Source: Rhodospirillales bacterium | GTDB taxonomy: Bacteria; Pseudomonadota; Alphaproteobacteria; UBA828 | DNA: 56,816 nt | Assembly (NCBI GenBank): GCA_028818855.1 | Contig: JAPPMY010000091.1 | Span: forward strand, 1 to 56,816 | Reading direction: 5' to 3' | In this document: positions 25,140 through 47,450 of the stretch, piece after piece | Position numbering within the stretch: the first letter of the stretch is position 1 | How the letters are laid out: each line of letters opens with the position of its first letter | Position numbers and translations under genes: made by a program | The notes under the pieces: model-generated | The model's database searches: none | Seen by the model: only the letters and a program-made list of their open reading frames with translations | What the model was told of the DNA's origin: nothing

Positions 25140-28100
25140 TCAGCCGCCCGCTTGCGCCAGCAGCGACGCGTTGCCGCCGGCCGCCGTGGTATCGACGCAG
25201 ACGTGGCGCTCCAGCGCGTAGCGTTCGGGCGCATCCGTGTCCACGATCAGCGGCAGGATGGGGCCGGCGCGCCGGGCAAGGGCTACGCGCATCGCGCGGA
25301 GCGCATCGGGGGCCGCGCAGCAGGCGACGGCGGCGATGCCGCCGAGCGTGGCGAGCGCTGCCGGCGGCACGTGGCCGTCCAGCACGACCACGCGGGGGTC
25401 GTCGGCCGAGGCCGTGAGCGCCCCGCTTGCGCCGGCGGCCACCGCGACGACGGCGTTCCCCGCCGCGCGGGCGGCTGCGACCTGCGCCCGCACCACCGGC
25501 CCGCCGGGGCCGAGGCAGAGGACCACGCCGCGGGGCGCGAACGAGAGCCGGTTGGACTCGCCGGTGGGGCCCGGCAGGTCCATCGGGGCGAAGCAGCCGC
25601 CATCGCCACGGCGCGGGCGCAAGACGAGGCCGCGCGCGGCATCGGTGATGGCGGCGGCGAGCAGGGCCTCGCTCACTTCCGCGCCGGCGGGCATGCCGCC
25701 TGCAGGCGCAGCGTCGGCCGTGAGGCGGCGCACGTAGTGCGGGCCGCCCGCCTTCGGCCCGGTCCCGCTCAGGCCTTCGCCACCGAAGGGCTGTGAGCCC
25801 ACCACCGCGCCGATCTGGTTGCGATTGACGTAGATGTTGCCGGCGCGGACCCGGTCGACGACGTGCTGCACGCGGTCGTCGATGCGGGTGTGCAGGCCGA
25901 AGGTGAGGCCGTAGCCGGCGCCGTTGACGGCATCCACCACGGCGTCGATCTCGTCGGCGGCGAAGGAGGCCACGTGCAGTACGGGACCGAACACCTCCCC
26001 GGCCAGCGCCTCGATGCCCTCCACCCTGAGCACGGTGGGCGGGAAGAACGTCCCCTCCCCCGGCGCCGCGAGCCGTTTGAGCACGCGGCCTTCCCGCTGG
26101 GCCTGCGCGCAGTGGGCCTCGATACGGCTTCGCGCGTCCGCGTCGATCACGGGGCCGACGTCGGTGGCGAGCGCCCAGGGGTCGCCGATGCGAAGCTCGT
26201 CCATGGCGCCCAGGAGCATCGTGAGGATGCGTTCCTCGACCTCGCGCTGGACGTAGAGCACGCGGAGCGCCGAGCAGCGCTGGCCGGCGCTCTGGAAGGC
26301 CGACGCCACGATGTCGCGCACCGCCTGCTCGGGCAGCGCGGTGGAATCGACGATCATCGCGTTGAGCCCGCCGGTCTCCGCGATGAGGGGCGCGGCGGGC
26401 GCGAGGTTCGCCGCCATCGCGCGGTCGATACGGCGCGCGGTCGCTGTCGAGCCGGTGAAGCAGACGCCGCTGATACGGGGATCGCCGACCAGCGCCGCGC
26501 CGACCGCCCCGCCGCCGGGCAGGAGCTGCACCGTGCTCTCGGGAATGCCGGCCTCGTGCATGAGCCGGACCGCGCGCGCCGCGATGAGCGGGGTCTGCTC
26601 CGCCGGCTTGGCGAGGACCGCGTTGCCGGCGGCGAGCGCGCCCAGAATCTGGCCGGAGAAGATCGCGAGCGGGAAGTTCCAGGGCGAGATGCAGGCGATG
26701 ACGCCGCAGGGCGCGCGCCCGCCCTCGCGGCCGAGGCGCAGCGCCTCACCCGCGTAGAAGCGCGCGAAATCGCAGGCCTCGCGCACCTCGGCCACGCAGT
26801 CGGGCAAGGTCTTCCCGGCCTCTCGGGCGGCGATGGCGAAAAGCTCCGGCGCGTGCGCCTCGTAGAGATCGGCCACGCGGCAGAGCAGGCGCGCCCGTTC
26901 CTCGACGCCCACGGCGGCCCATTCCGCCGCGCCGCCTCCGGCTGCCTCGAGCGCCGTCTCGATGTCCGCCTGCGCGGCCTCCGTCACGGTGCCCACGATG
27001 TCGTCCGGCCGCGCCGGGTTCCGCACCTCCGTGCTGGCGGCGCTTCCGACCTTGCCCGCGATGAGCGGCGCCGCCTCCCAAACGGCGGCCTGGAACGGCG
27101 CGCGCGCCGCCTCGATGGCCTCGACGGCGAGAGGATCGGTGAGGTCCCAGCCCTTCGCGTTGCCGCGGGCGGGGGCAAAGAGGGCGGCAGGCGCCGCGAT
27201 GGCGGGGTTCGCGACCGTGCCGCCGAACCCCTCCACCAGAGCGACGGGATCGCGCGCGATCTCCTCGGCCGGCACGCTCTCGTCCACGATCTGGTTCACG
27301 AACGAGCTGTTGGCGCCGTTCTCCAGCAGGCGGCGGACGAGATAGGCGAGCAGGTCGTGGTGCGCGCCCACCGGCGCGTAGATGCGGCAGCGGACGCCGT
27401 GTGCCGCGCGCACCGCTTCGTGCAGGGCCTCGCCCATGCCGTGCAGGCGCTGAAACTCGAAGTCGTCGCGGCCGCCCGCCATGTGCAGCACGGCCGCCAC
27501 CGTGTGCGCGTTGTGGGTCGCGAACTGGGGGTAGAGGCGATCCGCCATCCCCAGCAGCCTGCGCGCGCACGCGAGGTAGGCGACATCGGTGCCGGCCTTG
27601 CGGGTGAAGACAGGGAAGCCCGCGAGGCCCAGCGTCTGGGCGCGCTTGATCTCGGTGTCCCAGTAGGCGCCCTTGACGAGGCGCGCCATGACGCGGCGTC
27701 CGTGCGCCCGCGCCAGCGCGCCTACCCAGTCGATGACGTGCAGGGCCCGCTTGCCGTACGCCTGCACGACGACGCCGAAGCCATCCCAGCCGCCGAGCGC
27801 GGGGTCGGCGAGCACCGCCTCGATGACGTCGAGGGAGAGGTCGAGGCGCTCGGCCTCCTCGGCATCCACGTTGAGGCCGATGTCGGCGGACTTCGCGAGC
27901 AGGGCGAGCGCGCCGAGGCGGGGCGCAAGCTCCGTCATTACGCGCTCGCGCTGCGCGAACTCGTAGCGGGGGTGGAGCGCGGACAGCTTGACCGAGATGC
28001 CGGGCCGCTCGCGGATGCGCTCCCCCCGGCCGGCGGCGGCGAGGGCGGTGATGGAATCCGAATAGGCCAGGTGGTAGCGCCGCGCATCCGCTTCCGTTCG

Positions 28101-28727
28101 CGCCGCTTCGCCCAGCATATCGTAGGAGAAGCTGTAGCCCTGCGCCTCCAGCTCAGCGGCGCGGGCCGTGGCCTCGCCCATGTCGCGGCCGAGCACGAAC
28201 TGGTGCCCGAGCTCGCGCATGGCCTGGGCGACCGCGGTGCGGATCACGGGCTCGCCGAGGCGGCGGATCGCGCCGTGCAGGGCGCCGGCGAGGCCCTCCT
28301 CCGCCTCGCCCAGCACCTTGCCCGTGAGCAGCAGCGCCCAGGTCGACGCGTTGACCAGCGGCGAGCTGGAATGGCCGAGATGCGCGGCCCAGTCCGACGC
28401 CGCGATCTTGTCCTCGATCAGCGCGTCGATGGTCTCGGTATCGGGGACGCGGAGCAGCGCCTCGGCGAGGCACATGAGCGCCACGCCCTCCTGGGAGGAG
28501 AGCCCGTACTCGGCGAGGAAGCCCTGCATGATCGAGGCGGTGCCGCTCGCGCGCACGGTGCGCACCAGATCGGCCGCGTGCCGGCCGATCGCGGCCCGGT
28601 CCGCCGGCGGGAGCGCTGCGGCGTCCACCATGCGGCGGACCGCGTCCCTCTCGTCCTCGATGGCGGCGGCGCGCATCGCCGCCCGAATCTCAGCGAGACC
28701 CTGTGAAGCCCGGCAGGGGCGGCTCAC
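25140..28727 (-). CDS. putA: Bifunctional proline dehydrogenase / L-glutamate-gamma-semialdehyde dehydrogenase
   Basis: Oxidises proline to P5C with FAD, then glutamate semialdehyde to glutamate with NAD+. The 1195-residue product has an arm/PRODH region up to about residue 480 (QGYSFSYDMLGEAART, VKLSALHPRYEFAQRERVM, HNAHTVAAVL, FEFQRLHGMGEALH). The aldehyde-dehydrogenase domain follows (ISPWNFPLAIFSGQ; catalytic Glu in AETGGLN; catalytic Cys in SAGQRCSALRVL), then a C-terminal domain. The N-terminal ribbon-helix-helix repressor domain of longer PutA proteins is absent, so it should not be autoregulatory. The GTG start overlaps the ABC permease stop (GTGA). Confidence 0.95.
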   Translation of the reverse strand: MSRPCRASQGLAEIRAAMRAAAIEDERDAVRRMVDAAALPPADRAAIGRHAADLVRTVRASGTASIMQGFLAEYGLSSQEGVALMCLAEALLRVPDTETIDALIEDKIAASDWAAHLGHSSSPLVNASTWALLLTGKVLGEAEEGLAGALHGAIRRLGEPVIRTAVAQAMRELGHQFVLGRDMGEATARAAELEAQGYSFSYDMLGEAARTEADARRYHLAYSDSITALAAAGRGERIRERPGISVKLSALHPRYEFAQRERVMTELAPRLGALALLAKSADIGLNVDAEEAERLDLSLDVIEAVLADPALGGWDGFGVVVQAYGKRALHVIDWVGALARAHGRRVMARLVKGAYWDTEIKRAQTLGLAGFPVFTRKAGTDVAYLACARRLLGMADRLYPQFATHNAHTVAAVLHMAGGRDDFEFQRLHGMGEALHEAVRAAHGVRCRIYAPVGAHHDLLAYLVRRLLENGANSSFVNQIVDESVPAEEIARDPVALVEGFGGTVANPAIAAPAALFAPARGNAKGWDLTDPLAVEAIEAARAPFQAAVWEAAPLIAGKVGSAASTEVRNPARPDDIVGTVTEAAQADIETALEAAGGGAAEWAAVGVEERARLLCRVADLYEAHAPELFAIAAREAGKTLPDCVAEVREACDFARFYAGEALRLGREGGRAPCGVIACISPWNFPLAIFSGQILGALAAGNAVLAKPAEQTPLIAARAVRLMHEAGIPESTVQLLPGGGAVGAALVGDPRISGVCFTGSTATARRIDRAMAANLAPAAPLIAETGGLNAMIVDSTALPEQAVRDIVASAFQSAGQRCSALRVLYVQREVEERILTMLLGAMDELRIGDPWALATDVGPVIDADARSRIEAHCAQAQREGRVLKRLAAPGEGTFFPPTVLRVEGIEALAGEVFGPVLHVASFAADEIDAVVDAVNGAGYGLTFGLHTRIDDRVQHVVDRVRAGNIYVNRNQIGAVVGSQPFGGEGLSGTGPKAGGPHYVRRLTADAAPAGGMPAGAEVSEALLAAAITDAARGLVLRPRRGDGGCFAPMDLPGPTGESNRLSFAPRGVVLCLGPGGPVVRAQVAAARAAGNAVVAVAAGASGALTASADDPRVVVLDGHVPPAALATLGGIAAVACCAAPDALRAMRVALARRAGPILPLIVDTDAPERYALERHVCVDTTAAGGNASLLAQAGG

Positions 28728-31216: not shown

Positions 31217-32938
31217 TCAGGCGCGCGGTTCGGACCCCTGCTCGTCGATGGCAAGGCCCGGGGCGATCCGCACGCCATAGTCCCTGAGCGCGCCGTCGGG
31301 GGAAACGTACCCCCGCAGGACGTCGCGCCGCACCTCCTCGAAGGGGCGCGCCCTGGGATCGCCGTTGCCGCCGCCGCCGCCTGTCCTGGTCTCGACCACG
31401 GTGCCGGCTGCGACCGGCCTGGCGCGCATCTTGAGCGGCCCTTCGGTGGACCCGTCGGGGAGGGTGATCTCGACTTCAGGCCCGATGGCGTCCCTGCCGC
31501 CGTTCAGCCCCCAGGCGGGGGTGCGGGAGCGCTCGAACCAGAGGGCGCAGTGGCAGTCCTCGAGCGCCCTGTAGCGGCGCACGACGCCGCAGCCGCCCCG
31601 GTGCCGCCCCGGCCCGCCGGAATCGGTGCGGATGGAGAACTCCTCGAGGCGGACGGGGAACTTCGTCTCCATCACCTCGGCCGGGATGTTGCGGAAGCTG
31701 CCGTTCACCAGGTTGATGAGCGCGCTCTGGCCGTCGCCGTCGTTGCGGCCGCCCCATCCGCCGGCGGTGGCCTCGATGGACATCCACTGGCCCCGCGTGC
31801 GGTCGACGGAGAAGAAGAGGGACACCATCGAATCGCCGTAGTGGGCGGCGGTGGAGCGCTCCGGGATCGCTTCGGAGAGGCAGGAGATGAAGAGGTCCGC
31901 CAGCAGGCCGAGGCCGGTGAAGTACCACTCGCAGGCCGCGGGCTCTCTGGCGTTGAACATGCAGTCGTCGGGTATGTGGACCGTCATGGTCTCGAAGGAG
32001 CCGCCGGTGATCGCGCGCTCCGGGTTTATCATCGTCTTGTAGGCGAGGCGGAGCAGGGAGACGGTCTGGCTCGCGCCGCAGTTGACGGAGCCGGGGACGA
32101 TGCCCGACGAGCCTTCGAGGTCGACGATCAGCTCCTCGCCCTTGACGGTGAGCCTGAGCGCGACCTTGACCGGGTCTTCGCCTGCGCCGTCACTGTCGAG
32201 ATAGCCGTCACGGTACCAGGTGCCGTCCTCAATCGCGGCGATCGCTTCTCGGTCCATGCGCCGCGCCTGCTCGAAGATGTTGTCGCAGGCGGCCCGGTAG
32301 GTCTCGATGCCGATGCGCTCCAGAAGCTGCGACAGCCGGCGTTCGCCGGTGCGGACGGCGGCGATCTGGGCGCCGAGGTCGCCGATGCTCGCGTCCGGCA
32401 TCCGAGTGTTGAGACGGAGCAGGTCGAACCACTCGCGGATGGGCTTGCCCTTCTCGACGATGCGCGTCGGCCCGAGGCGCAGCCCCTCCTGGTAGATGTT
32501 GGTGGAGCCCATGACGGTGCCGGGGTCGATGGCGCCGATGTCGTTCCAGTGCGCGCGCGCGGCGCCGAAGCCGATCAGCTCGCCCGCGAAGAAGATCGGC
32601 CCCACCACCGAGACGTCATGCAGGTGCGAGCCCTGCATGTAGCTGTCGTTCATGATGAAGACGTCGCCGGGCGCGATGTCGTCGCCGTAGTACTCGATCA
32701 CGTGGTGGACGTTGGCGTCGATGGCGCCGATGAAGAGCGGCACGCCGCTCGACTGCCCCAGCATGTTGCCGTCGGCGTCCAAGAGGCCCACGGCGCTGTC
32801 GCGGCCCTCGTAGATGACCGCCGAGTGGGCCGAGCGCCAGAGCGAGGCGTTCATGTCCTCGGCGCAGGAGATGACGAAGTTGCGCACGATCTCCGTCGTG
32901 ACGGGGTCGGCCGCGTTGCGCAGGCTCGCGTCGTTCAT
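31217..32938 (-). CDS. hyuB: Hydantoinase B/oxoprolinase family subunit
   Basis: The 573-residue partner of HyuA in an ATP-dependent cyclic-amide hydrolase (N-methylhydantoinase, 5-oxoprolinase class) or a related carboxylase. Family signatures are present: [86 protein letters not shown]. Later come the [17 protein letters not shown] strand and the Gly-rich end [24 protein letters not shown]. Its ATG overlaps the HyuA stop (ATGA), as expected for subunits of one enzyme. It cannot be told from sequence whether it hydrolyses or carboxylates. Confidence 0.93.
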
Positions 32939-38046: not shown

Positions 38047-38817
38047 TCAGCGCCCCCCGCTCCGGCGGCGCTTGAGCCGCTCCGCGCCGGCGCGGAGACG
38101 GGCCTGCGCGTCCGCGCCGGACCAGATCTCGACTTGGCGGGCGATGCGGGCGGGCATCTGCTCCCGCAGGTCGGCGCAGAACTTGCCGAGCCGCATGCGC
38201 TTCGATTCCCGGAACGCCTCCGGCGCGAGGTCGCGCAAGAAGAGCAGACGCTGCCACGCCGCAACCTCGATCTCCGCTTTCGGCCCGACCGCGTGGACGA
38301 GGTTGAGGGCGGGGCCCTCCTCGGCGCGGACGAGCTTGCCGGTGTAGATCATGTCCGAGGCGACGAAGTCGCCGGCCACGAAGCGGAGCAGGCGGTCGCC
38401 GTAGTAGGGGTTGGGCACGCCGAGGAGGATTTCCGGCTTGCCGATGAGCACGTGCCCCGTGGCGGCGTAGCGATAGTCGCAGGCGAGGTAGATGGCCATG
38501 CCGCCGCCGATGGCGTGGCCCCTGATGGCGCCGACGATGGGCACGGGCGATTCCAGCATGGCGAGGATGAGGTCCGCCAGCGCGTGGAACATCTCCTTGA
38601 TCTCTTCACGCGAACGGCTGAGCGCCCAGTCGAGATCGAGGCCGTTGCAGAAGAATTTCTGGCCGCCGCAGAGCATCGCGCCGCGCGCCCCCCGGTTGGC
38701 CTCCGCCACCGCCTGCGCGAGGTCGCGGATCACCGCCGTCGTCAGCGCGTTGGCGGTGCCGCTGGCAAGACGGATGCGGAGGCAGTCGTCCTCGCGCTCG
38801 CAGAGAATGTTGCTCAA
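38047..38817 (-). CDS. Enoyl-CoA hydratase/isomerase (crotonase family)
   Basis: A 256-residue crotonase-fold protein with an oxyanion-hole strand (GGQKFFCNGLDLDWAL) and the second hole segment VGAIRGHAIGGGMAIYLACDYR. GKPEILLGVPNPYYG lies near where hydratases and isomerases hold their catalytic acids. It resembles delta3-delta2-enoyl-CoA isomerases more than classical hydratases. No ATG is available. TTG 38817 has GAGGGAGAGAG immediately upstream, and TTG 38844 would overlap the DUF35 stop (TTGA). Last gene of the second cluster. Confidence 0.85.
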   Translation of the reverse strand: MSNILCEREDDCLRIRLASGTANALTTAVIRDLAQAVAEANRGARGAMLCGGQKFFCNGLDLDWALSRSREEIKEMFHALADLILAMLESPVPIVGAIRGHAIGGGMAIYLACDYRYAATGHVLIGKPEILLGVPNPYYGDRLLRFVAGDFVASDMIYTGKLVRAEEGPALNLVHAVGPKAEIEVAAWQRLLFLRDLAPEAFRESKRMRLGKFCADLREQMPARIARQVEIWSGADAQARLRAGAERLKRRRSGGR

Positions 38818-38840
38818 TGCTCTCTCCCTCGGTCTGCCGG

Positions 38841-39254
38841 TCAACCCCGGCGCGGGCGGAAGCGGGGCAAGGTGAGGACGTCCGTCACCCGGTCGAACAC
38901 GATCTCGACGGCGAGGCCCACCCGGAGCGCATCCGCCGGGCAGTCGACGATGTTCGCGGTCAGCCGCACGCCCTCCGCCAGCTCGATCTGCGCCACGGCG
39001 TAGGGGATCTCAGCCCTGAACGCGGGGAACCAGTCCTTGTGGACCAGGGTCCAGGCAGAGACCGTGCCCCGGCCCTCCGCCTCCTCCCAGCCGATGCGCT
39101 CCGAGAAGCAGGCAGGGCAGACGGGGCCGGGCGGCCAGTGCCAGGCGCCGCAGGCGGCGCAGCGGGGCAGGCGGAGCACGCCCTCGTGCGCGCTCTCCCA
39201 GAAGCGCGCGTTGTCCGGGTTGATGCGGGGCTCGGGCTTCTCGTACGCGCTCAT
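38841..39254 (-). CDS. Zn-ribbon/OB-fold (DUF35) protein, partner of the thiolase-fold protein
   Basis: A 137-residue protein with a rubredoxin-like zinc ribbon (LPRCAACGAWHWPPGPVCPAC: two CxxC pairs) followed by an OB-fold (GTVSAWTLVHKDWFPAFR, VPYAV-like AEIPYAVAQIELAEGVRLTANIVD). Such proteins form complexes with thiolase-fold enzymes, for example the ChsH2/Ltp2 aldolase of steroid degradation. They are needed for acyl-CoA binding or stability. It is encoded 18 nt after the thiolase-fold gene, on the same strand. Confidence 0.9.
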   Translation of the reverse strand: MSAYEKPEPRINPDNARFWESAHEGVLRLPRCAACGAWHWPPGPVCPACFSERIGWEEAEGRGTVSAWTLVHKDWFPAFRAEIPYAVAQIELAEGVRLTANIVDCPADALRVGLAVEIVFDRVTDVLTLPRFRPRRG

Positions 39255-39272: not shown

Positions 39273-40451
39273 TCAGTTCCGCAGAATCACGGAATCGCCC
39301 CAGGCCGTCGCCCACTGGAGCGCGCCGGCGCCCTCGATCTGGCGCGGCCCGGCGTCGCCCCGCAACTGGCGCACCATCTCGCAGAGCGAGTTCCAGCCGG
39401 CGACGTGGGCTTCCGACAGCAGGCCGCCGGAGGTGTTGACCGGCAGCGCGCCGCCGGGGCCGATGCGGCCATCCTGCACGAAGCCCGCGGCCTCGCCGGC
39501 TGCGCAGAAGCCGAAGCGCTCCAGCACGAAGAGCACCAGCGGCGAGAAGGCGTCGTAGGTGTAGAGGCCCTGGATCGCATCGCGCGGGATACCGGCCGAG
39601 CGGTAGACCGCGAGGTCGCGCGGGGCGGGGCGCGCCTCCCGCGTGCCGCTCTGCTGATTGATGCCGAGCCCCGGCGGGGCGAAGATGAACTCGTCGCGGC
39701 CCGCCGCCATGCCCTGCATCCCGGCGATGAGGACGGGGCGCTGGCGGAGGTCCCGCGCATGCTCCGCCGTCGTCACCAGCACCACCGCCGCCCCGTCGCT
39801 CACGATGCAGCAGTCGAAGAGCCTGAGCGGGTCCACCACCATGCGCGAGGCCTGGTGATCGGCGACGCTCATGGGCCGCTGCATCACGGCGGCGGGGTTG
39901 AGGCGCGCGTGGGCGCGGAGCGCCACCGGCACCGCGGCGAGCCCGGCGCTTGTCACGCCGTAGAGCGCCATGTAGCGCTGCATGGCGAGCGCGGCGCCGC
40001 CGGCCGGCGCGGTCAGGCCGTAGTGCGGCGTCTCCGCATGGGTGCCGCCGGTCTCGCGGTAACCCTCGAAGTCGTGCGGCCCGCCGAGGATGTCGCGCTC
40101 GCGGGTGAAGCTCAGCACGTTGACGCAGGCGACGACCTTCGCCATGCCGCAGGTCACCGCCATCGCGGCGGTCTGCAGGCTGCCGGTGACGAAGCGGCCG
40201 TGGGTCCACGCCTGGTTGACGAAATCGATCTCGAGGCCGAAGGCCTGGGCGACCTGGTCGTAGTCGACGCCGAGCGGCCAGCCGATGTGGATGGAGAGGC
40301 CGTCGATGTCGTCCCTCTGCAGCCCCGCGTCGGCGAGCGCCGCCTTGAGCGCGCTCGCGGCCAGCGCAAGCTGGCTCTCTGGCAGGTTGCGGCCGAACCG
40401 GCTGGTCCCGATGCCGACGATCGCTGCCCGGTCGCGCAGCGCTTCCGACAC
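39273..40451 (-). CDS. Thiolase-fold acyl-CoA enzyme lacking the nucleophilic Cys (Ltp2/SCP-x-like)
   Basis: A 392-residue thiolase-superfamily protein. The N-terminus AAIVGIGTSRFGR and ALADAGLQRDDIDGL are standard. Where thiolases have the nucleophile (LCGSG/CASG) this protein has GRFVTGSLQTAAMAV, so no Cys. The later signature is VNTSGGLLSEAHVAGWNSL with the His kept, like Ltp2-type proteins, which act as retro-aldolases with a DUF35 partner. It starts GTG 40451, overlapping the ligase stop by one base (TAGTG). Thiolysis is therefore unlikely; C-C bond cleavage by a retro-aldol reaction is the better guess. Confidence 0.85.
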   Translation of the reverse strand: MSEALRDRAAIVGIGTSRFGRNLPESQLALAASALKAALADAGLQRDDIDGLSIHIGWPLGVDYDQVAQAFGLEIDFVNQAWTHGRFVTGSLQTAAMAVTCGMAKVVACVNVLSFTRERDILGGPHDFEGYRETGGTHAETPHYGLTAPAGGAALAMQRYMALYGVTSAGLAAVPVALRAHARLNPAAVMQRPMSVADHQASRMVVDPLRLFDCCIVSDGAAVVLVTTAEHARDLRQRPVLIAGMQGMAAGRDEFIFAPPGLGINQQSGTREARPAPRDLAVYRSAGIPRDAIQGLYTYDAFSPLVLFVLERFGFCAAGEAAGFVQDGRIGPGGALPVNTSGGLLSEAHVAGWNSLCEMVRQLRGDAGPRQIEGAGALQWATAWGDSVILRN

Positions 40452-42037
40452 TACGGCGGGTCCGCGCCGAAGAATTCGCCGAGCCGGGCCTTCTGCAGCT
40501 TGCCGGTGGTGGTGAGCGGCAGGTCGCCCGCGCCGACGAAGCGAAATTCCCGCGGCACCTTGTAGGCGGCGAGGTGCGCGCTGCAGTGGGCGGCGAGGGC
40601 CTCGGCGTCGGGCGTGGCGCCCTCGCGGGGCACGATGACGGCGGCGACGCGCTGGTCGCGCTCCGGGTCCGGCAGGCCGATCACGTAGGCAAGCTCCACG
40701 CCTGCCACCTCGGCCAGCACCGCTTCCACCTCCGCCGGCGAGACGTTGATGCCGCCGGTCTTGATCATCTCCTTGAGCCGCCCGCGGAAGTGGAGGAAGC
40801 CCGCGTCGTCGAGCAGCCCGAGGTCGCCGGTGCGGAACCAGCCGTCGTGAAAGGCCCGTGCGTCCTGTTCCGGGTCCTTGTAGTAGCCCACCGTGACGTA
40901 GCCCCGGACGAGGATCTCGCCCACGGAGCCGGCAGGCAGCGGCGCCAGGGTCTCGGGGTCGGCGATGCGGATCTCCGTGCCCGGCAGCGCGCGGCCCACG
41001 GTGTTCAGGCGCTTCTCCAGCGGGTCGTCCACGTCGGTGACGTTGGAGTTGCCGTAGGTCTCGGTCAACCCGTAGATGTTGCAGGTCTCGCTCACGCCGA
41101 GGTCGATGAGGCGCCTGATCTGCTCGGGCGAGCCCAGCGTCGCGCCGGCACGGAGCGAGGAGATGTCGCGCGCCGGGCGCTCGGGGTGGCGCTCCAGCGC
41201 GTGCACCATATTGGGCGTGCCGTAGAAGACGGTGCAGCGCTCGCCCTCGATCAGCCTGAGCGCGTCCCCGGCATCGAAGTGCTCCTGCAGCACGATGCAG
41301 CCCGCATGGGTCATGACGGCGAAGAGCGCGTTCTCGCAGCCGAGGCCCCAGAAGAGCGAGACCGCGAGCCAGAGCCTGTCGCCGGGGCGGAGGTGCAGGC
41401 GCTCGCCGATGTTCCACATGTTCTCGATGAGGGCGTAGTGCTGGAGCTGCACGCCCTTGGGCAGCGCCGTGGTGCCCGAGGTGTAGAGCAGGTAGGCCAC
41501 GTCCTCGCCCTGCACGGCCGCCTGGGCGCGCTCGATCGCCGCGTCGTCGACGGTCTCGGCCAGCTCCCACAGGGTCTCGAAGCGCCGCGCCGGGTGGCCG
41601 GGCGGCCCGCCCACGCGCACGATCTCGTCGATGCCCGCCAGCGCATCGCCCTCGCGGCCGAGCGCATCGAGGGTCTCCAGGTAGTTGTGCTTGAGGAAGC
41701 GGTCGACGGTGATCAGGACCTTCGCATCCGAGTGGACGAGCAGGTGGGCAAGCTCCCGCCGGCTCGCCCAGGTGTTGATCGCCACCATTGTCGCGCCCAG
41801 CAGCGTGATCGCGAAGTCGGCGAGGAGCCATTCCGGCCGGTTGCCCATGAGGATGCCGACCTTGTCGCCCCGGCGGACACCCAGAGCGTGGAGGCCCCTG
41901 GCCAGCCTGCGCACCTCGGCGCGCAGCGCGCGGTAGCTGAGCCGCGTCCCGCCGCCAACCAGCGCCTCGTGGTCGGGGTAGCGCTCCGCCAGCTCGTCGA
42001 GCAGGTTCGGGATGGTCTTCGCGCGGGGCGGGCGCAT
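40451..42037 (-). CDS. AMP-dependent acyl-CoA ligase
   Basis: A 528-residue ANL-superfamily enzyme that converts a carboxylate to its CoA thioester via an acyl-adenylate. Seen: LLYTSGTTALPKGVQ (P-loop, residues about 183-197), NIYGLTETYGNSN (A5), the WFRTGDLG and GRLKEMIKTGGINVSP motifs (A7/A8), and the C-terminal catalytic Lys in TTTGKLQKAR. The ATG start is clear. It sits between the dehalogenase-like gene and the thiolase-fold gene, so it should activate the acid produced upstream for CoA-dependent degradation. Confidence 0.93.
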   Translation of the reverse strand: MRPPRAKTIPNLLDELAERYPDHEALVGGGTRLSYRALRAEVRRLARGLHALGVRRGDKVGILMGNRPEWLLADFAITLLGATMVAINTWASRRELAHLLVHSDAKVLITVDRFLKHNYLETLDALGREGDALAGIDEIVRVGGPPGHPARRFETLWELAETVDDAAIERAQAAVQGEDVAYLLYTSGTTALPKGVQLQHYALIENMWNIGERLHLRPGDRLWLAVSLFWGLGCENALFAVMTHAGCIVLQEHFDAGDALRLIEGERCTVFYGTPNMVHALERHPERPARDISSLRAGATLGSPEQIRRLIDLGVSETCNIYGLTETYGNSNVTDVDDPLEKRLNTVGRALPGTEIRIADPETLAPLPAGSVGEILVRGYVTVGYYKDPEQDARAFHDGWFRTGDLGLLDDAGFLHFRGRLKEMIKTGGINVSPAEVEAVLAEVAGVELAYVIGLPDPERDQRVAAVIVPREGATPDAEALAAHCSAHLAAYKVPREFRFVGAGDLPLTTTGKLQKARLGEFFGADPP

Positions 42038-42064
42038 CGGGTCGGGTGCTCCGGCGCGCGCCGC

Positions 42065-42793
42065 TCAGGCCCAGCCGCCGGCGAAGGGCATGACGTGCCC
42101 GGTGATGAAGTCGCTCCTGTCGGAGGCGTAGAAGGCCACCAGGGCCGCGACCTCCTCGGGCTTGCCGAGGCGCTTCAGCGGGACGTTGCGGGTCATCCTG
42201 GCGAGCGTCGCGGGATCGTTCACCAGCTCGGGCGGGAAGTACGTCGGGCTCTCGACGTAGTTGGGCGCGATGGCGTTGACCTGGATGTTGTCGCGCCCGA
42301 GCTCCTGGGCGAGCGACACGGTGAGCGCGTTGGTGGCGCCGCGGGCCGCCACGTACATCGAATAGTTGGGCAGCCCCCGGAGCGGCGTCGCCGAGGTGAT
42401 GAAGAGGATCTTGCCGCTCTTGCGCTCCTTCATGTGCGGCACGACGGCGCTCGCCATCTCGAAGGGAAAGACCACCATCTCCTCGAGCGCGGCCCGCAGG
42501 TCGTCCACGCGCGCCGCCTCGATGGGCGCGCGGAGGGCGGCGCCCGCGTCGTTGCAGACGACCGTGTCGATCCGGCCGCAAGCCTCGATCGCCGCCGCGA
42601 CGATCTCCGCAGGCGTCTGCGCGCGGACGACGGCGAGCACGGGATTGGCCGCGGCGAACGCTTCGGCCTCGGCGGCATCGGCGAAGCTCCTGTCGTGACA
42701 GACCACGGTTGCCCCTTGGGCTGCCAGCTCCGCCGCGACGGGGCGGCCCACGAAGTGTTCGACGTTGGTGATGAGAACGACGCGGTCCTTCAT
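42065..42793 (-). CDS. Short-chain-fold protein with halohydrin dehalogenase motifs
   Basis: A 242-residue SDR-fold protein. The NAD(P) loop TGxxxGxG is replaced by TNVEHFVG (residues 9-16), which fits T-x4-F-x-G. The active site is Ser134, Tyr147, Arg151 (S-x12-Y-x3-R), where SDR enzymes have Tyr-x3-Lys. Both motifs are diagnostic for halohydrin dehalogenases, cofactor-free enzymes that convert vicinal haloalcohols to epoxides and back. VCHDRSF and FITSATP also match the known HheC sequence as I recall it. It is encoded 59 nt after HyuB2 and 27 nt before the CoA ligase. Function is strongly suggested; the substrate is unknown. A keto-reductase role is less likely without the nucleotide loop. 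Confidence 0.82.
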   Translation of the reverse strand: MKDRVVLITNVEHFVGRPVAAELAAQGATVVCHDRSFADAAEAEAFAAANPVLAVVRAQTPAEIVAAAIEACGRIDTVVCNDAGAALRAPIEAARVDDLRAALEEMVVFPFEMASAVVPHMKERKSGKILFITSATPLRGLPNYSMYVAARGATNALTVSLAQELGRDNIQVNAIAPNYVESPTYFPPELVNDPATLARMTRNVPLKRLGKPEEVAALVAFYASDRSDFITGHVMPFAGGWA

Positions 42794-42853
42794 CGCGGCC
42801 CCCGCAGCAGCGTGTCGGAAGGGCGGCGCCCGGAGCAGCCGGGCCGGGCCGCC

Positions 42854-44473
42854 TCAGGCGCCGTCAACGCGGTCCTGCGCGACGCGTTCGGGCGTGCGCC
42901 GGGCGAGGTCGCCGTAGCCGGCACCGCCGCCGGTGCTCATCACCACGCGATCGCCCCTGGCGAGCCGGAAGCTCGTCTTCGAGCCGAGCGAAATCTCCTG
43001 GTTGCCGCGCAGGACGCTGACGAACGCCGCGCCGCCGTCGTCCCCGCCGAAGAGCCCCTCCGGCTGGATGGTGAAGCGGTCGGAGTAGGACTGGTACTCG
43101 ACGTCGTCGGCCAGCACCTCGTAGACGCGCCGGACCCCGCGCCCGCCGCGCATCTCCCCCGCGCCGCCCGAGCCCGCCACGAGCGCATACTCCGCCACGC
43201 GGAAGAACGCGTGCTCCATGTCGATGGCCTCGATGGGGATGTTCGAGCAGTTGGAGAGCGGGCTGTCCACCGCGTCGCAGCCGTCGCCCAGCGCGCTCGC
43301 GCCGTAGCCGCCGCCGAAGATCTCGAGGTAGATGCCGTAGCCGCCTTCGCCCAGGTGGGAGAGGCAGGTGGCGTGCGTGGTGTCGAAGCCGGCCGCCATC
43401 ACCTGCTCGGGCACCGCGTGAGCCAGCGCCTTCATCACCGCGTTGTAGGCGCGGTAGGCAGAGAGCATGCGCGCGCGCACAGGCGCCGGCGGGCGGGGAT
43501 TGAGCAGCGAGCCGTAGGGTGCTGCGATGGTGATGGGCCGCTTCGCGCCTTCGTTGAACGGGATGTCGGGGCTGGTGAGCACCGACTTGATGCAGGAGAG
43601 ACCGGCCGCGATGGTGGACGCGAAGGGGCAGTTCACGTTGGTGCGCACCTGGTCGCAGGTGCCCTCGTAGTCGACCGAGACGGTGTCGCCTGCGATCTCC
43701 ACCCGCGCGCGGACGACCAGCGGCTCGTCGCCCACCCCGTCGCTGTCGAGCTGGTCCCGGCCCGTGTAGACGCCGTCGGGCGCTGCGGCGATCGCAGCCC
43801 GCATGCGCTGCTCGGCGTAGTCGAGCAGGCCCGCCATCGCCTCCGTGACCGCGTCCGCGCCGAACTTCTCGCAAAGCTCGATCACGCGCCGCGCGCCCAC
43901 GCCGTTGGCTGCGAACTGGGCGTTGCAGTCCCCGATGGTCTTCTCCGGCACACGCACGTTTGCGCGCACCAGGCGCTCGAAGGGGCCGCCGTTCCAGTCG
44001 CGGTTCACGTTGTAGCGGCTCGGCGGGAAGATGAGACCCTCCTGGTGGACATCGCCGGCCGCCATGTTGAGGCCCGGCGCGCCGCCGCCGAGGTCGAGGT
44101 GATGGGCGACGGTCGCGCTGAAGCCGACGAGCCTCGCGCCGAAGAAGATGGGCGTGAAGATGAAGATGTCGGGGACGTGCTGGCCGCCGTGGTAGGGGTC
44201 GTTGTTGATGTAGAAGTCGCCGGGCTCCAGCGTTTCGGGCGGATAGAGTTCGGCGCAGGGGCGGAAGGTCGTGCCGATCGGCCCGAGCTGCATGGGTATC
44301 AGCTCCGCCTGGCTCACCACGTTGCCGCCCACGTCGAGCAGCGCGGCGGAGCAGTCGTTGGCCTCCCGCACGATCGGCGAATAGGCCGAGCGCACGAGCT
44401 TGATCCCCATTTCCTTCGCGGCCGCGATCAGCGCCTGGGAAATGATCGCCTGGTCGACCTGGTCGAGCGCCAT
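42854..44473 (-). CDS. Hydantoinase B/oxoprolinase family subunit, second copy
   Basis: A 539-residue HyuB-type protein with MALDQVDQAIISQALIAAAKEMG, LIPMQLGPIGTTFRPCAELYPPETL, DFYINNDPYHGGQHVPDIFI, VGFSATVAHHLDLGGGAPGLN and the closing STGGGAGYGDLARR. It is divergent from the copy at 31-33 kb and follows HyuA2 by 39 nt. The FEGTCDQVRTNVNCPF-like segment and the NDPYHGGQH motif fit the larger oxoprolinase/acetophenone-carboxylase group. It forms a heteromeric ATP-dependent enzyme with HyuA2. Hydrolysis of a cyclic amide and carboxylation of a ketone are both open. Confidence 0.91.
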   Translation of the reverse strand: MALDQVDQAIISQALIAAAKEMGIKLVRSAYSPIVREANDCSAALLDVGGNVVSQAELIPMQLGPIGTTFRPCAELYPPETLEPGDFYINNDPYHGGQHVPDIFIFTPIFFGARLVGFSATVAHHLDLGGGAPGLNMAAGDVHQEGLIFPPSRYNVNRDWNGGPFERLVRANVRVPEKTIGDCNAQFAANGVGARRVIELCEKFGADAVTEAMAGLLDYAEQRMRAAIAAAPDGVYTGRDQLDSDGVGDEPLVVRARVEIAGDTVSVDYEGTCDQVRTNVNCPFASTIAAGLSCIKSVLTSPDIPFNEGAKRPITIAAPYGSLLNPRPPAPVRARMLSAYRAYNAVMKALAHAVPEQVMAAGFDTTHATCLSHLGEGGYGIYLEIFGGGYGASALGDGCDAVDSPLSNCSNIPIEAIDMEHAFFRVAEYALVAGSGGAGEMRGGRGVRRVYEVLADDVEYQSYSDRFTIQPEGLFGGDDGGAAFVSVLRGNQEISLGSKTSFRLARGDRVVMSTGGGAGYGDLARRTPERVAQDRVDGA

Positions 44474-44512: not shown

Positions 44513-46534
44513 TCAGCGTGTCAGGATGACATTATGGTGCGCGTCCACGTGCGCGCGCCATCCCGGCGGTACGTAGGCGGTGGACGTCTCGTCGGCGACG
44601 AGCAGCGGCCCCTCGCCGGCGCCGGACTCGAGCAGCGCGCTGCGGTTGAGCCGGCGGGCGGGCCTGCGCGCGCCGCCATCGAAGAGCGTGACAGTCGCTG
44701 CGTGCGGGGCGTCGTCCGTGGCTTCGAGCGCAGGCACGCCAGGCGGCGGCGATGCGATGCCGAGCCGGAAGGAGACGATCTCCGGCCGGTTGGTGCGCGA
44801 ATCGTCGAACTCGAAGATGCGGTGGTGCGCCTCATTGAACCGCTCGCGAAGGTGCGCGGCGTCGAGACGCGCGATCTCGTCCGCTCTGAGCTGGATCGGG
44901 ACCTCGAAGGCCTGCCCCACGTAGCGCATCTCGAGCGTGTGGGTGTAGCGGAGGCCGCTGGTGAGCCCGAGCGCGGTGAAGGCGGCCTCGGCATCCCCGC
45001 GCATGGCAGCGAACTGCGCGCGCACCCGTTCCGCAGCGCCCGCCTCGTCGAGGGCGAGCCGGGCGGTACGGCTCTCGTAGCGGACGAAGTCCGAGGCGAC
45101 GAGGCCGAAGGCGGAGAGCACGCCGGCCGCCGGCGGAATGACGATGGTGGCGATGCCGAGCACGTCCGCGACCCGTGCAGCGTGCAGCGGGCCCGCGCCG
45201 CCGAAGGGGACGAGCACGTAGTCGCGCGGGTCCCGCCCCCGCTCGGTCGAGACGAGCTGGATGGCGCGGACGATGTTGTGCTCGGCCACCCGCACCGCGT
45301 CGTCGGCCACCTGCTCGACGCTGCGGCCGAACTGCTGCGCCAGCGTGGCGAAGGCGGCGCGGGCGAGCGCGGGGTCCACGTCCATGCGCCCGCCGAGGAA
45401 GGTGTCGGCGAGCACGGTGCCGCGGACGAGATGGGCGTCGGTGATCGTGGGGTCGGCGCCGCCCCGCCGGTAGCAGGCGGGGCCCGGCTCGGCGCCGGCG
45501 GAGCGCGGGCCGACCCGGAGCATGCCGCCGTCGTCCCGCCACACGATCGAGCCGCCGCCTGCGCCGACCGTCACGATGTCGAGCACCGGGATGCGGATGG
45601 GCAGGCCGTCGATCTCGGCATCGCTCGTCAGCACCGGCGTGCCGTCCCGCACGAGGCAGACGTCGGTGCTCGTGCCGCCCATGTCGAAGGTGATGAGGTC
45701 GCGGTAGCCGGAGCGCTCCGCCTGGCGGATCGCGCCCATGACCCCCGCGGCCGGCCCGGAATAGAGCGAGGTGATGGCGTTGCCGGCCATGCCGCGCGCG
45801 GGCAGCCTGCCCCCGTTGGACTGCATGAGGCTGAAGCGGCCGGCGAACCCGCGCTCGCCCAGCGCGTGCGCGAAGCGGCCGAGGTAGCGGTCGATGACCG
45901 GCTGCACGTAGGCGGCCAACACGGTGGTGGACGCGCGCTCGTACTCGCGGAACTCGCGGGTGACGTCGCACGAGCACGTGATGCCGATGCCGGGGAAGCG
46001 CTCGGCAACGAGCGCCGCCACCCGCCGCTCGTGCGCCGGGTTCGCGTAGCTGTTGAGGAAGCAGATCGCGACGGATTCGTAGCCGCCGCCCTGCAACGCC
46101 CCGGCGATGCGCTGCCGCGCTGCCGCCTCGTCCAGTGGCGTGACCACCGCGCCGTCGGGGCCCACGCGTTCCGGGATCTCGAAGGTGTCGCGTCGCGGCA
46201 CCACCGGCTCCGGCTTGCGGTAGTGGATGTCGTAGATGGAGCGCCGGCTCTGGCGCTGCAGGACGAGGAGGTCGCGGAAGCCCTCGGTGGCGAAGAAGGC
46301 CACCTTCGCGCCCTTGCGTTCGAGCACCGCGTTGGTGGCGACGGTCGAACCGTGCACGAGATCGCCCGTGGCCCCCAGCGGCAGACCTGCCTCGTCGAGC
46401 GCGGCGATGGCGCCCCGGTGCGGCGCTTGCGGCGTGCTCGGCACCTTGGTGATGCGCACGTCGCCGCCCTCGAACGCGACGAGATCGGTGAACGTGCCGC
46501 CGACCTCCACCCCCACCCGGATCGCAGCGCTCAT
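44513..46534 (-). CDS. Hydantoinase A/oxoprolinase family subunit, second copy
   Basis: A 673-residue ATP-dependent subunit. The start MSAAIRVGVEVGGTFTDLVAFEGG holds the phosphate loop. HGSTVATNAVLERKGAKVAFFATEGFRD, MQSNGGRLPA, LYSGPAAGVMGA, TFDMGGTSTDVCLV, VGPRSAGAEPGPACYRRGG and FGGAGPLHAARVADVLG follow the family order. ATG 46534 is the family start; the frame stays open upstream to 46816 without resemblance. No clear ribosome binding site precedes it. It leads the seven-gene reverse-strand cluster with HyuB2, the dehalogenase-like protein, ligase, thiolase-fold protein, DUF35 and crotonase. Confidence 0.92.
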   Translation of the reverse strand: MSAAIRVGVEVGGTFTDLVAFEGGDVRITKVPSTPQAPHRGAIAALDEAGLPLGATGDLVHGSTVATNAVLERKGAKVAFFATEGFRDLLVLQRQSRRSIYDIHYRKPEPVVPRRDTFEIPERVGPDGAVVTPLDEAAARQRIAGALQGGGYESVAICFLNSYANPAHERRVAALVAERFPGIGITCSCDVTREFREYERASTTVLAAYVQPVIDRYLGRFAHALGERGFAGRFSLMQSNGGRLPARGMAGNAITSLYSGPAAGVMGAIRQAERSGYRDLITFDMGGTSTDVCLVRDGTPVLTSDAEIDGLPIRIPVLDIVTVGAGGGSIVWRDDGGMLRVGPRSAGAEPGPACYRRGGADPTITDAHLVRGTVLADTFLGGRMDVDPALARAAFATLAQQFGRSVEQVADDAVRVAEHNIVRAIQLVSTERGRDPRDYVLVPFGGAGPLHAARVADVLGIATIVIPPAAGVLSAFGLVASDFVRYESRTARLALDEAGAAERVRAQFAAMRGDAEAAFTALGLTSGLRYTHTLEMRYVGQAFEVPIQLRADEIARLDAAHLRERFNEAHHRIFEFDDSRTNRPEIVSFRLGIASPPPGVPALEATDDAPHAATVTLFDGGARRPARRLNRSALLESGAGEGPLLVADETSTAYVPPGWRAHVDAHHNVILTR

Positions 46535-46733: not shown

Positions 46734-47450
46734 GTGGCAGGCAGACCGGATGTTCGGCACGACGCCGAGCGGGCCTTCGCCGTTCTCGAACGGGGCGGAA
46801 TCGGTATCCTGCCCATGAGCGTCGGCTATTCCGCAATCGGCGGATCGGCGGCGGCGCTCAGGACGATCTTCGAGACCAAGCGCCGCGCGCCATCGAAGCT
46901 GAACGCGATGCTGGGCGACATGGCGCTCCACCGCGAGCTTCACGTGCTCGACCAGAAGGGGTGGGACGTCGCCAGCACCCTGGTCGAGGACTACGACCTG
47001 CCGCTCGGCGCGATCGCGCCCGCGCGCATGGACCACCCCATCCTCAGCAAGATGGAGCCCGAGGCGCTCGACGCCTCCACCAGCGAAGGCACCGTGCTGA
47101 TGCTGCTCAACGCGGGCCCCTTCCATGCAGCGATCACGCGGCTCAGCCGCGAGGCCCAGCATCCGCTGTTCGGCTCGTCCGCGAACCTCTCGCTGTCGGG
47201 CACGAAGTTCCGCGTGGACGACATCGAGCCGGAGCTGATCGCGATCGCCGATATCGTCATCGACCACGGGCTGCGCCTCTATCACCTGTACCGGGCCTCG
47301 TCGACCCTGCTCGACCTGGAGACCTTCGAGGTGGTCCGCTACGGCGCCTGCTTCGAGCTCATCGCCGATGCGCTGAGGCGCCGTTTCGGCATCGTGCTGC
47401 CGCCGCCACCGCCCGGCCACATCCGCGACCTGGTCGGCGACCTCCCCTGA
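46734..47450 (+). CDS. Divergent Sua5/YciO/YrdC-family protein
   Basis: A YrdC-fold protein of about 238 residues. The family pattern is recognisable: GGIGILPMSVGYSAIGG, then KRRAPSKLNAM where Sua5 has its nucleotide-binding KxR...K, and PLFGSSANLSLSGTKF for the SANxSG segment. But the usual PTETVYGLG motif is replaced, and the C-terminus is unlike tRNA-modifying TsaC/Sua5. A perfect AGGAGG (46717-46722) lies upstream; GTG 46725 and GTG 46734 are both possible starts. It is divergent from HyuA2 and 34 nt before the enolase-superfamily gene, so a catabolic role is more plausible than tRNA modification (inference). Confidence 0.75.
   Translation: MAGRPDVRHDAERAFAVLERGGIGILPMSVGYSAIGGSAAALRTIFETKRRAPSKLNAMLGDMALHRELHVLDQKGWDVASTLVEDYDLPLGAIAPARMDHPILSKMEPEALDASTSEGTVLMLLNAGPFHAAITRLSREAQHPLFGSSANLSLSGTKFRVDDIEPELIAIADIVIDHGLRLYHLYRASSTLLDLETFEVVRYGACFELIADALRRRFGIVLPPPPPGHIRDLVGDLP

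What the first reader, a model, noticed from the sequence alone, without database searches (positions are those of the whole stretch)
42065..42793. Halohydrin dehalogenase candidate with both diagnostic motifs, inside a catabolic operon
The protein has lost the SDR nucleotide loop and carries T-x4-F-x-G at residues 9-16 and S134-x12-Y147-x3-R151. I know these two motifs as the definition of halohydrin dehalogenases (HheA-HheG types). VCHDRSF and FITSATP also look like HheC, as I remember it. These enzymes are rare and often have no known natural context. Here the gene lies with HyuAB, a CoA ligase and a thiolase-like aldolase, which would give such a context.
Basis: partly seen in the sequence, partly recalled or inferred. 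Interest (0 to 1): 0.85.

Follow-up and report, generated by a model that had tools for sequence, protein, structure and literature searches.

The report
Halohydrin dehalogenase with unconserved neighbours
The gene very probably encodes a halohydrin dehalogenase, an enzyme that strips chloride or bromide from alcohols without a cofactor, but the pathway genes beside it appear to be a recent local arrangement and do not reveal its natural job.

Summary
The ORF at 42065-42793 (-) and both motifs are real. The protein is a halohydrin dehalogenase (HHDH) by the sequence and model tests made. In the PDB, 6A41 (50% identical), HheC (42%) and HheA (39%) score ahead of every ordinary SDR. Foldseek ranks 1-16 are HHDHs. 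A tree separates 60 HHDH-side rows from 16 SDRs at 100/99. Neither motif occurs in 67 SDR rows (66 readable); both occur in 45 of 59 HHDH-side rows. It lies on the A/C side, without HheC's C-terminal extension.

The "catabolic operon" reading is not supported. The HyuAB-HHDH-CoA ligase-thiolase order was seen only here and in one sister species. In four other congeners the CoA-ligase and HyuAB blocks lie apart without HHDH between them; the HHDH found in two of these sits elsewhere. The genome has 48 Hydantoinase_B matches, so a HyuAB neighbour is weak evidence. In a class sample 41 of 385 genomes hold a match at E <= 1e-45, in a phylum sample 2 of 398. Activity and natural substrate are untested. 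New member of a known kind, of modest interest.

The parts
42065..42793 (-). halohydrin dehalogenase candidate, 242 aa
42746..42769 (-). codons of motif 1, residues 9-16 TNVEHFVG (replaces the SDR glycine-rich loop)
42341..42394 (-). codons of motif 2, residues 134-151 (S134, Y147, R151 triad)
42233..42262 (-). codons of residues 178-187 (Asn178-Tyr179 ... YFP): Asn in place of the SDR Gly, and the two-residue insertion shared by the HHDH-side rows
42806..42857 (.). junction: DNA similarity to the HHDH segment of sister species stops at 42805, similarity to their HyuAB segment starts at 42858
42037..42065 (.). junction: similarity to sister-species CoA-ligase segments stops between 42037 and 42058, similarity to their HHDH segments starts between 42048 and 42065
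42854..44473 (-). HyuB-like (Hydantoinase_B) protein; neighbour, not a conserved partner
44513..46534 (-). HyuA-like (Hydantoinase_A) protein; neighbour (start codon not certain)
40451..42037 (-). AMP-binding acyl-CoA ligase; neighbour, not a conserved partner
39273..40451 (-). thiolase / lipid-transfer-protein-like
38841..39254 (-). ChsH2-type zinc ribbon / OB-fold protein
38047..38844 (-). enoyl-CoA hydratase/isomerase family protein

Best explanation
The gene encodes a halohydrin dehalogenase on the A/C side of the family. By analogy with HheC (inferred): Ser134 orients a vicinal halo-alcohol, Tyr147, its pKa lowered by Arg151, takes the hydroxyl proton, the oxygen displaces the neighbouring halide to form an epoxide, and the halide leaves into a pocket lined by the motif-1 loop and, I think, the Asn178-Tyr179 loop, where an SDR would hold NAD(P)H. 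The reaction is reversible, so it could also open epoxides with small anions. It is an accessory gene (found in 5 of 8 genomes of the genus, own included) under purifying selection. In this lineage it came to lie between a HyuAB pair and a CoA-ligase/thiolase operon; the gaps of 60 and 27 bp would allow co-transcription, but a shared pathway is not shown. The natural substrate is unknown; a naturally occurring halo-alcohol or epoxide, catabolised or detoxified, is the likeliest class (inference).
For: PDB sequence search: 6a41 3.4e-73, HheC 6e-52, HheA 8.4e-47; first ordinary SDR (4nbu) 1e-28. Five separating columns or features between 59 HHDH-side and 67 SDR rows. Tree 100/99 for the HHDH side. 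AlphaFold2 model pLDDT 93.9; Foldseek ranks 1-16 HHDH, first ordinary SDR at rank 17. Review PMC4989007 (sections 4 and 5 read): the two motifs picked 37 new genes, and activity was confirmed for a selection of 19. dN/dS 0.11-0.21. Synteny of window, G003 and other congeners.
Against: No activity was measured. The nearest reference with a solved structure is 50% identical and the PDB calls it only 'dehalogenase' / 'Dehalogenation enzyme'; a search of the paper library for its code found nothing. NCBIfam gives only generic SDR families, the 25 shown all below their cut-offs. By phmmer HheB ranks below about a dozen ordinary SDRs, and in Foldseek ordinary SDRs reach TM 0.88, above the HheD2 chains (0.81-0.85), with HheD8 at rank 22: the fold alone does not separate HHDH from SDR. 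HHDH/SDR labels of the rows were set by me; only 16 SDR rows were in the tree, which warned of long branches meeting, and HheE, HheF and HheG references were absent. No EHN-type epoxide hydrolase was found in this genome, so the fate of an epoxide product is unexplained.
Confidence: 0.83

Rival explanations
1. One reading: the HHDH is a step of a dedicated catabolic pathway with HyuAB, CoA ligase and thiolase, and this neighbourhood is its natural context.
For: Same strand, gaps of 60 and 27 bp; the whole order is shared with G003/L010. In other genera of the family HHDH also lies near Hydantoinase genes: a racemase and then HyuA and HyuB on L167 and L168, and a HyuA at the contig end on L161.
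Against: In G002, G005, G006 and G007 the CoA-ligase block and the HyuAB block exist without HHDH between them; in G006 the contig ends 233 bp after HyuB, so there the CoA-ligase side alone shows the separation. The HyuA of L161 and L167 is 38% and 34% identical to the one beside HHDH in the window (L168 was not compared with it), and that unit also follows RadC without HHDH in G013, G015 and G018. 48 Hydantoinase_B matches in this genome make such neighbours likely.
Confidence: 0.1
2. A member of the HHDH clade that no longer, or never mainly, acts on halogenated compounds: the triad and anion pocket serve epoxide opening or another elimination with a small anion (nitrite, cyanide) or another leaving group.
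For: Found in 41 of 385 sampled alphaproteobacterial genomes with very mixed neighbours; PMC11976700 (passages seen) says the tested substrates are probably not HheC's natural ones.
Against: Both motifs are intact in the window protein, and the review reports confirmed activity for 19 motif-picked enzymes.
Confidence: 0.2
3. An ordinary NAD(P)H-dependent SDR that shares these residues by chance.
For: Pfam and the 25 NCBIfam families shown name only generic SDR families; SDR folds are close in TM-score.
Against: Glycine-rich loop gone, Lys replaced by Arg, SDR Gly replaced by Asn178, insertion present; tree and sequence search place it with HHDHs.
Confidence: 0.03

Closest known systems
PDB 6A41 'Dehalogenation enzyme'
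   Same: 50.4% identity over 242 residues, best sequence and fold match, both motifs
   Different: groups with rows of another alphaproteobacterial family, f68; no paper found by its code
HheC of Agrobacterium radiobacter AD1 (1PWX; strain as named in the PMC5292711 abstract)
   Same: 41.9% identity over 236 residues, fold TM 0.92; same CHD-SF, FITSATP and PNY stretches
   Different: lacks HheC's C-terminal extension with Trp249 (extension described in PMC4989007; window protein ends at residue 242); HheC's gene lies with an epoxide hydrolase gene (PMC11976700, passages), this one does not
HheA / HheA2 (4Z9F, 1ZMO)
   Same: 38.7% identity to 4Z9F, fold TM 0.90-0.92, chains of 244 residues
   Different: separate long branch in the tree
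HheB (4ZD6), HheD2 (7B73), HheD8 (8XXB)
   Same: both motifs (read from the alignments)
   Different: 31.9% identity to HheB; other side of the HHDH tree
FabG-like SDRs (for example 4NBU)
   Same: Rossmann fold, TM 0.88; Ser and Tyr positions shared by 66 of 67 SDR rows
   Different: the SDR rows have the glycine-rich loop and Lys

Membership tests
Halohydrin dehalogenase | motif 1, T-x4-F/Y-x-G | tested here: met
   TNVEHFVG at 9-16
Halohydrin dehalogenase | motif 2, S-x12-Y-x3-R | tested here: met
   S134, Y147, R151
Halohydrin dehalogenase | SDR glycine-rich nucleotide loop lost | tested here: met
   N at position 10 and F at 14, where SDR rows have G (66 of 67) and G/A (66 of 67)
Halohydrin dehalogenase | groups with characterised HHDHs apart from SDRs | tested here: met
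   60-row side with HheA, HheA2, HheB, HheC, 7B73 (HheD2), 8XXB (HheD8) and 6A41, support 100/99 against 16 SDRs; HheE, HheF, HheG not included
Halohydrin dehalogenase | HHDH fold | tested here: met
   model pLDDT 93.9; Foldseek ranks 1-16 are HHDHs, though SDR folds are close
Halohydrin dehalogenase | homotetramer | not tested
   only a monomer was modelled
Halohydrin dehalogenase | cofactor-free halide release / epoxide opening | not testable with these tools
   needs a purified enzyme
HHDH subtype C | C-terminal extension carrying Trp249 | tested here: not met
   protein ends GGWA at residue 242; HheC chain 1pwx is 254 residues
HHDH subtypes A-G | assignment to one subtype by phylogeny | tested here: inconclusive
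   on the A/C side (54 rows, 95/79) but the inner order is partly open and three subtypes lack references
Caprolactamase (CapAB), for the neighbours HyuAB | NCBIfam equivalog cut-off of 1000 bits | tested here: not met
   468.5 and 214.9 bits

The most novel reading that the evidence does not exclude
In this alphaproteobacterial family the HHDH is a mobile accessory gene that moves as a single-gene segment between catabolic loci (after RadC, beside Rieske or TauD oxygenases, between HyuAB and a CoA-ligase operon), serving the breakdown of natural marine halo-alcohols or epoxides in host-associated bacteria rather than industrial xenobiotics.
Probability: 0.22. Interest if true: 0.6.

Novelty: new member of a known kind. 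Interest (0 to 1): 0.36.

Why it matters
Earlier HHDHs came from enrichments on haloalcohols or epihalohydrins and later ones from database mining (PMC4989007, section 5); HheC's natural substrates are unclear (PMC11976700, passages), and one paper calls known HHDHs restricted to enzymes evolved on post-industrial pollutants (PMC9396626, passages). Matches spread over 20 alphaproteobacterial families of one class sample (my count from the 41 rows, own family included; not every match was checked for motifs), and purifying selection on this one, argue for an older natural role and name genomes in which to look for it. The negative result on context warns against reading a pathway from this one neighbourhood.

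Tried and rejected
Epoxide hydrolase partner: EHN family (PF06441) found in 1 of 9 genomes searched (G048), not in the window's genome; other epoxide-hydrolase families were not searched. Plasmid origin: no match at E <= 1e-40 in the plasmid collection. Literature on 6A41: none found. A link to sponges: the labels RHO and COS of some sister MAG records suggest sponge metagenomes (PMC8163846, search listing and passages, sampled Rhopaloeides odorabile and Coscinoderma matthewsi), but the passages do not give the bin names and the window's own source is unknown; kept as a lead only. Word starts 'haloge' and 'bromin' do not occur in that paper. Searches for papers on HHDHs with sponge symbionts, gene clusters, physiological role or Alphaproteobacteria gave nothing on a natural context of this subclade in the listings seen. 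A regular link with oxygenases was considered: a Rieske-type gene directly after HHDH in L009/L011/L015 (one orthologous arrangement), TauD in L012/L013, a ring-hydroxylase beta subunit in L014; I saw no such gene next to HHDH in the other loci that I scanned, so it was not adopted. Gene calls in the relatives come from home-made ORF scorers, with Pfam run on a selection only. Rows dropped before the tree (duplicate contigs, partial proteins, most SDR rows) are set in the script; several duplicates were dropped before too. In one search the HHDH of L165 was not picked up by the scorer, so that locus gives no context there.

Full report
What is there. The ORF at 42065-42793 (-) encodes 242 residues. 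The motif definitions are those given in PMC11976700 (passages seen) and PMC4989007 (sections 4 and 5 read).

Is it an HHDH? phmmer against PDB sequences (605 matches, best 60 shown) puts 6a41 'dehalogenase' first (3.4e-73), then HheC entries (6e-52 and on) and HheA (8.4e-47). Before the first ordinary SDR, 4nbu at 1e-28, come also 8h8y ('alpha/beta hydrolase'), 8xxb and 7b73 ('Short-chain dehydrogenase/reductase SDR'), 8hqp (AbHheG_m) and 7wkq (HHDH); titles 7b73 as HheD2 and 8xxb as HheD8, and that 8h8y is an HheG-type enzyme is my recollection. HheB entries come later, after about a dozen ordinary SDRs. In an alignment of 126 rows that I labelled as 59 HHDH-side and 67 SDR (one SDR row empty), five features separate: position 10 (G in 66 of 67 SDR rows, in 0 of 59 HHDH-side rows), position 14 (F/Y/W in 55 of 59; G/A in 66 of 67), position 151 (R in 57 of 59; K in 66 of 67), position 178 (N in 56 of 59, G in one; G in 65 of 67) and a two-residue insertion (59 of 59 against 0 of 67). 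Motif 1 in its strict form is missed by 13 of 59 and motif 2 by 4 of 59 HHDH-side rows (L102, L104 and the second copies of the tandem pairs on L124 and L126); L029, without motif 1, is partial.

Tree and fold. A maximum-likelihood tree of 76 rows splits 60 HHDH-side rows from 16 SDRs at 100/99; the window lies in a 54-row A/C side (95/79) with HheA, HheC and 6A41, while HheB, 7B73 and 8XXB lie on the other. The program warned that long branches meet. The AlphaFold2 model (pLDDT 93.9) matches HHDHs at Foldseek ranks 1-16: 6a41 TM 0.94, HheC 0.92-0.93, HheA/HheA2 and an HHDH mutant (8oxf) 0.89-0.92, one HheD2 chain 0.83. Rank 17 is FabG 4nbu (TM 0.88), and HheD8 is at rank 22, so the ranking owes much to sequence. 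Identity to the window: 6A41 50.4%, HheC 41.9%, HheA 38.7%, HheB 31.9%.

How common. In relatives 17 of 95 genomes, and in an even sample of the class 41 of 385, match at E <= 1e-45, own genome included in both. In a phylum sample it is 2 of 398, again including the own genome. The samples are drawn differently and should not be compared as rates. Not every match was read: 30 loci were returned and 17, with overlap. Variants of motif 1 exist: W for F in L094, L105, L019 and L022, S for T in L013, L111 and L116, M for T in L101 and L102.

Context. Window and G003 (contig of L010) share HyuAB-HHDH-CoA ligase-thiolase-OB-ECH. In G002, G005, G006 and G007 the CoA ligase (82-88%) and HyuB (91-93%) orthologs lie on different contigs, or in G002 about 104 kb apart on one contig, and the CoA-ligase operon starts without HHDH. 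On G006 the HyuB contig ends 233 bp after the gene. G001 has the HyuB ortholog but no CoA-ligase match, G004 the reverse. HHDH is found in G000, G001, G002, G003 and G006 and not in G004, G005 and G007; G004 is only 62% complete. DNA comparison puts the block borders at the gene edges: CoA-ligase block up to 42037-42058, HHDH block from 42048-42065 to 42805, HyuAB block from 42858. That the linked order is the derived one is parsimony, an inference. In G002, G006 and L015 HHDH is followed by a Rieske-type oxygenase gene (Pfam on L155; 95-96% identical genes in the others); in G002 nucleotidyl-transferase, RmlD-like and glycosyltransferase genes lie upstream. In L012 and L013 it lies after MetAP and RadC and before TauD and an SDR, in L012 with one opposite-strand gene call between HHDH and TauD. 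In G010, G011 and G014 it lies after MetAP (with RadC in G010 only) and near a racemase and another HyuA; HyuB follows in G011 and G014. G013, G015 and G018 have such a RadC-HyuA-HyuB backbone without HHDH. That HyuA is 38% (L161) and 34% (L167) identical to the HyuA beside HHDH in the window. The genome has 48 Hydantoinase_B matches, some of them fragments, so HyuAB neighbours carry little information.

Selection and mechanism. dN/dS of about 0.11-0.21 against six orthologs indicates purifying selection (from dN and dS). The mechanism in the best explanation is transferred from the HheC work summarised in PMC4989007; the part of the Asn178 loop in the pocket is my recollection; only the presence of the residues and the fold is shown here.

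Verdict. The enzyme call is right as far as sequence can say; the pathway call is not supported. New member of a known kind. The open question, a natural role of HHDHs, is sharpened but not answered.

Noticed in passing
G000 (whole genome), incl. window 31220-32938 and 42854-44473: 48 Hydantoinase_B (PF02538) matches in one 4.78-Mb genome, some of them fragments. A large HyuAB expansion.
   Followed up: partly
L124, L126 (family f98: G314, G225; also two matches in G117): Two HHDH-like genes side by side; in L124 and L126 one copy has motif 2 and the neighbour lacks both motifs. Possibly a heteromeric or degenerate partner.
   Followed up: no
L094, L105, L019, L022: HHDH-side clade with Trp in the motif-1 aromatic position (HWAG). 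L019 and L022 are labelled Rhizobium and Kuenenia but carry nearly the same gene and similar neighbours, so at least one contig is probably mis-binned.
   Followed up: no
L101, L102: HHDH-side proteins with Met in place of the motif-1 Thr.
   Followed up: no
L195-L201, L161, L167, L168, L012, L013: The slot after MetAP-RadC holds HHDH, a HyuAB unit or other genes in different relatives: a variable site.
   Followed up: partly
L014 6212-7931: The gene before HHDH looks like an MBL-fold alkylsulfatase-type protein split over two frames (by eye); left as it is.
   Followed up: no
window 46734-47447 (+): Sua5/YciO/YrdC-domain protein next to the HyuA gene, an unusual neighbour; its ortholog also lies on the HyuAB contig of G006 (L152).
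   Followed up: no
window 25143-28676 (-): PutA-type proline dehydrogenase/aldehyde dehydrogenase, 1178 aa.
   Followed up: no
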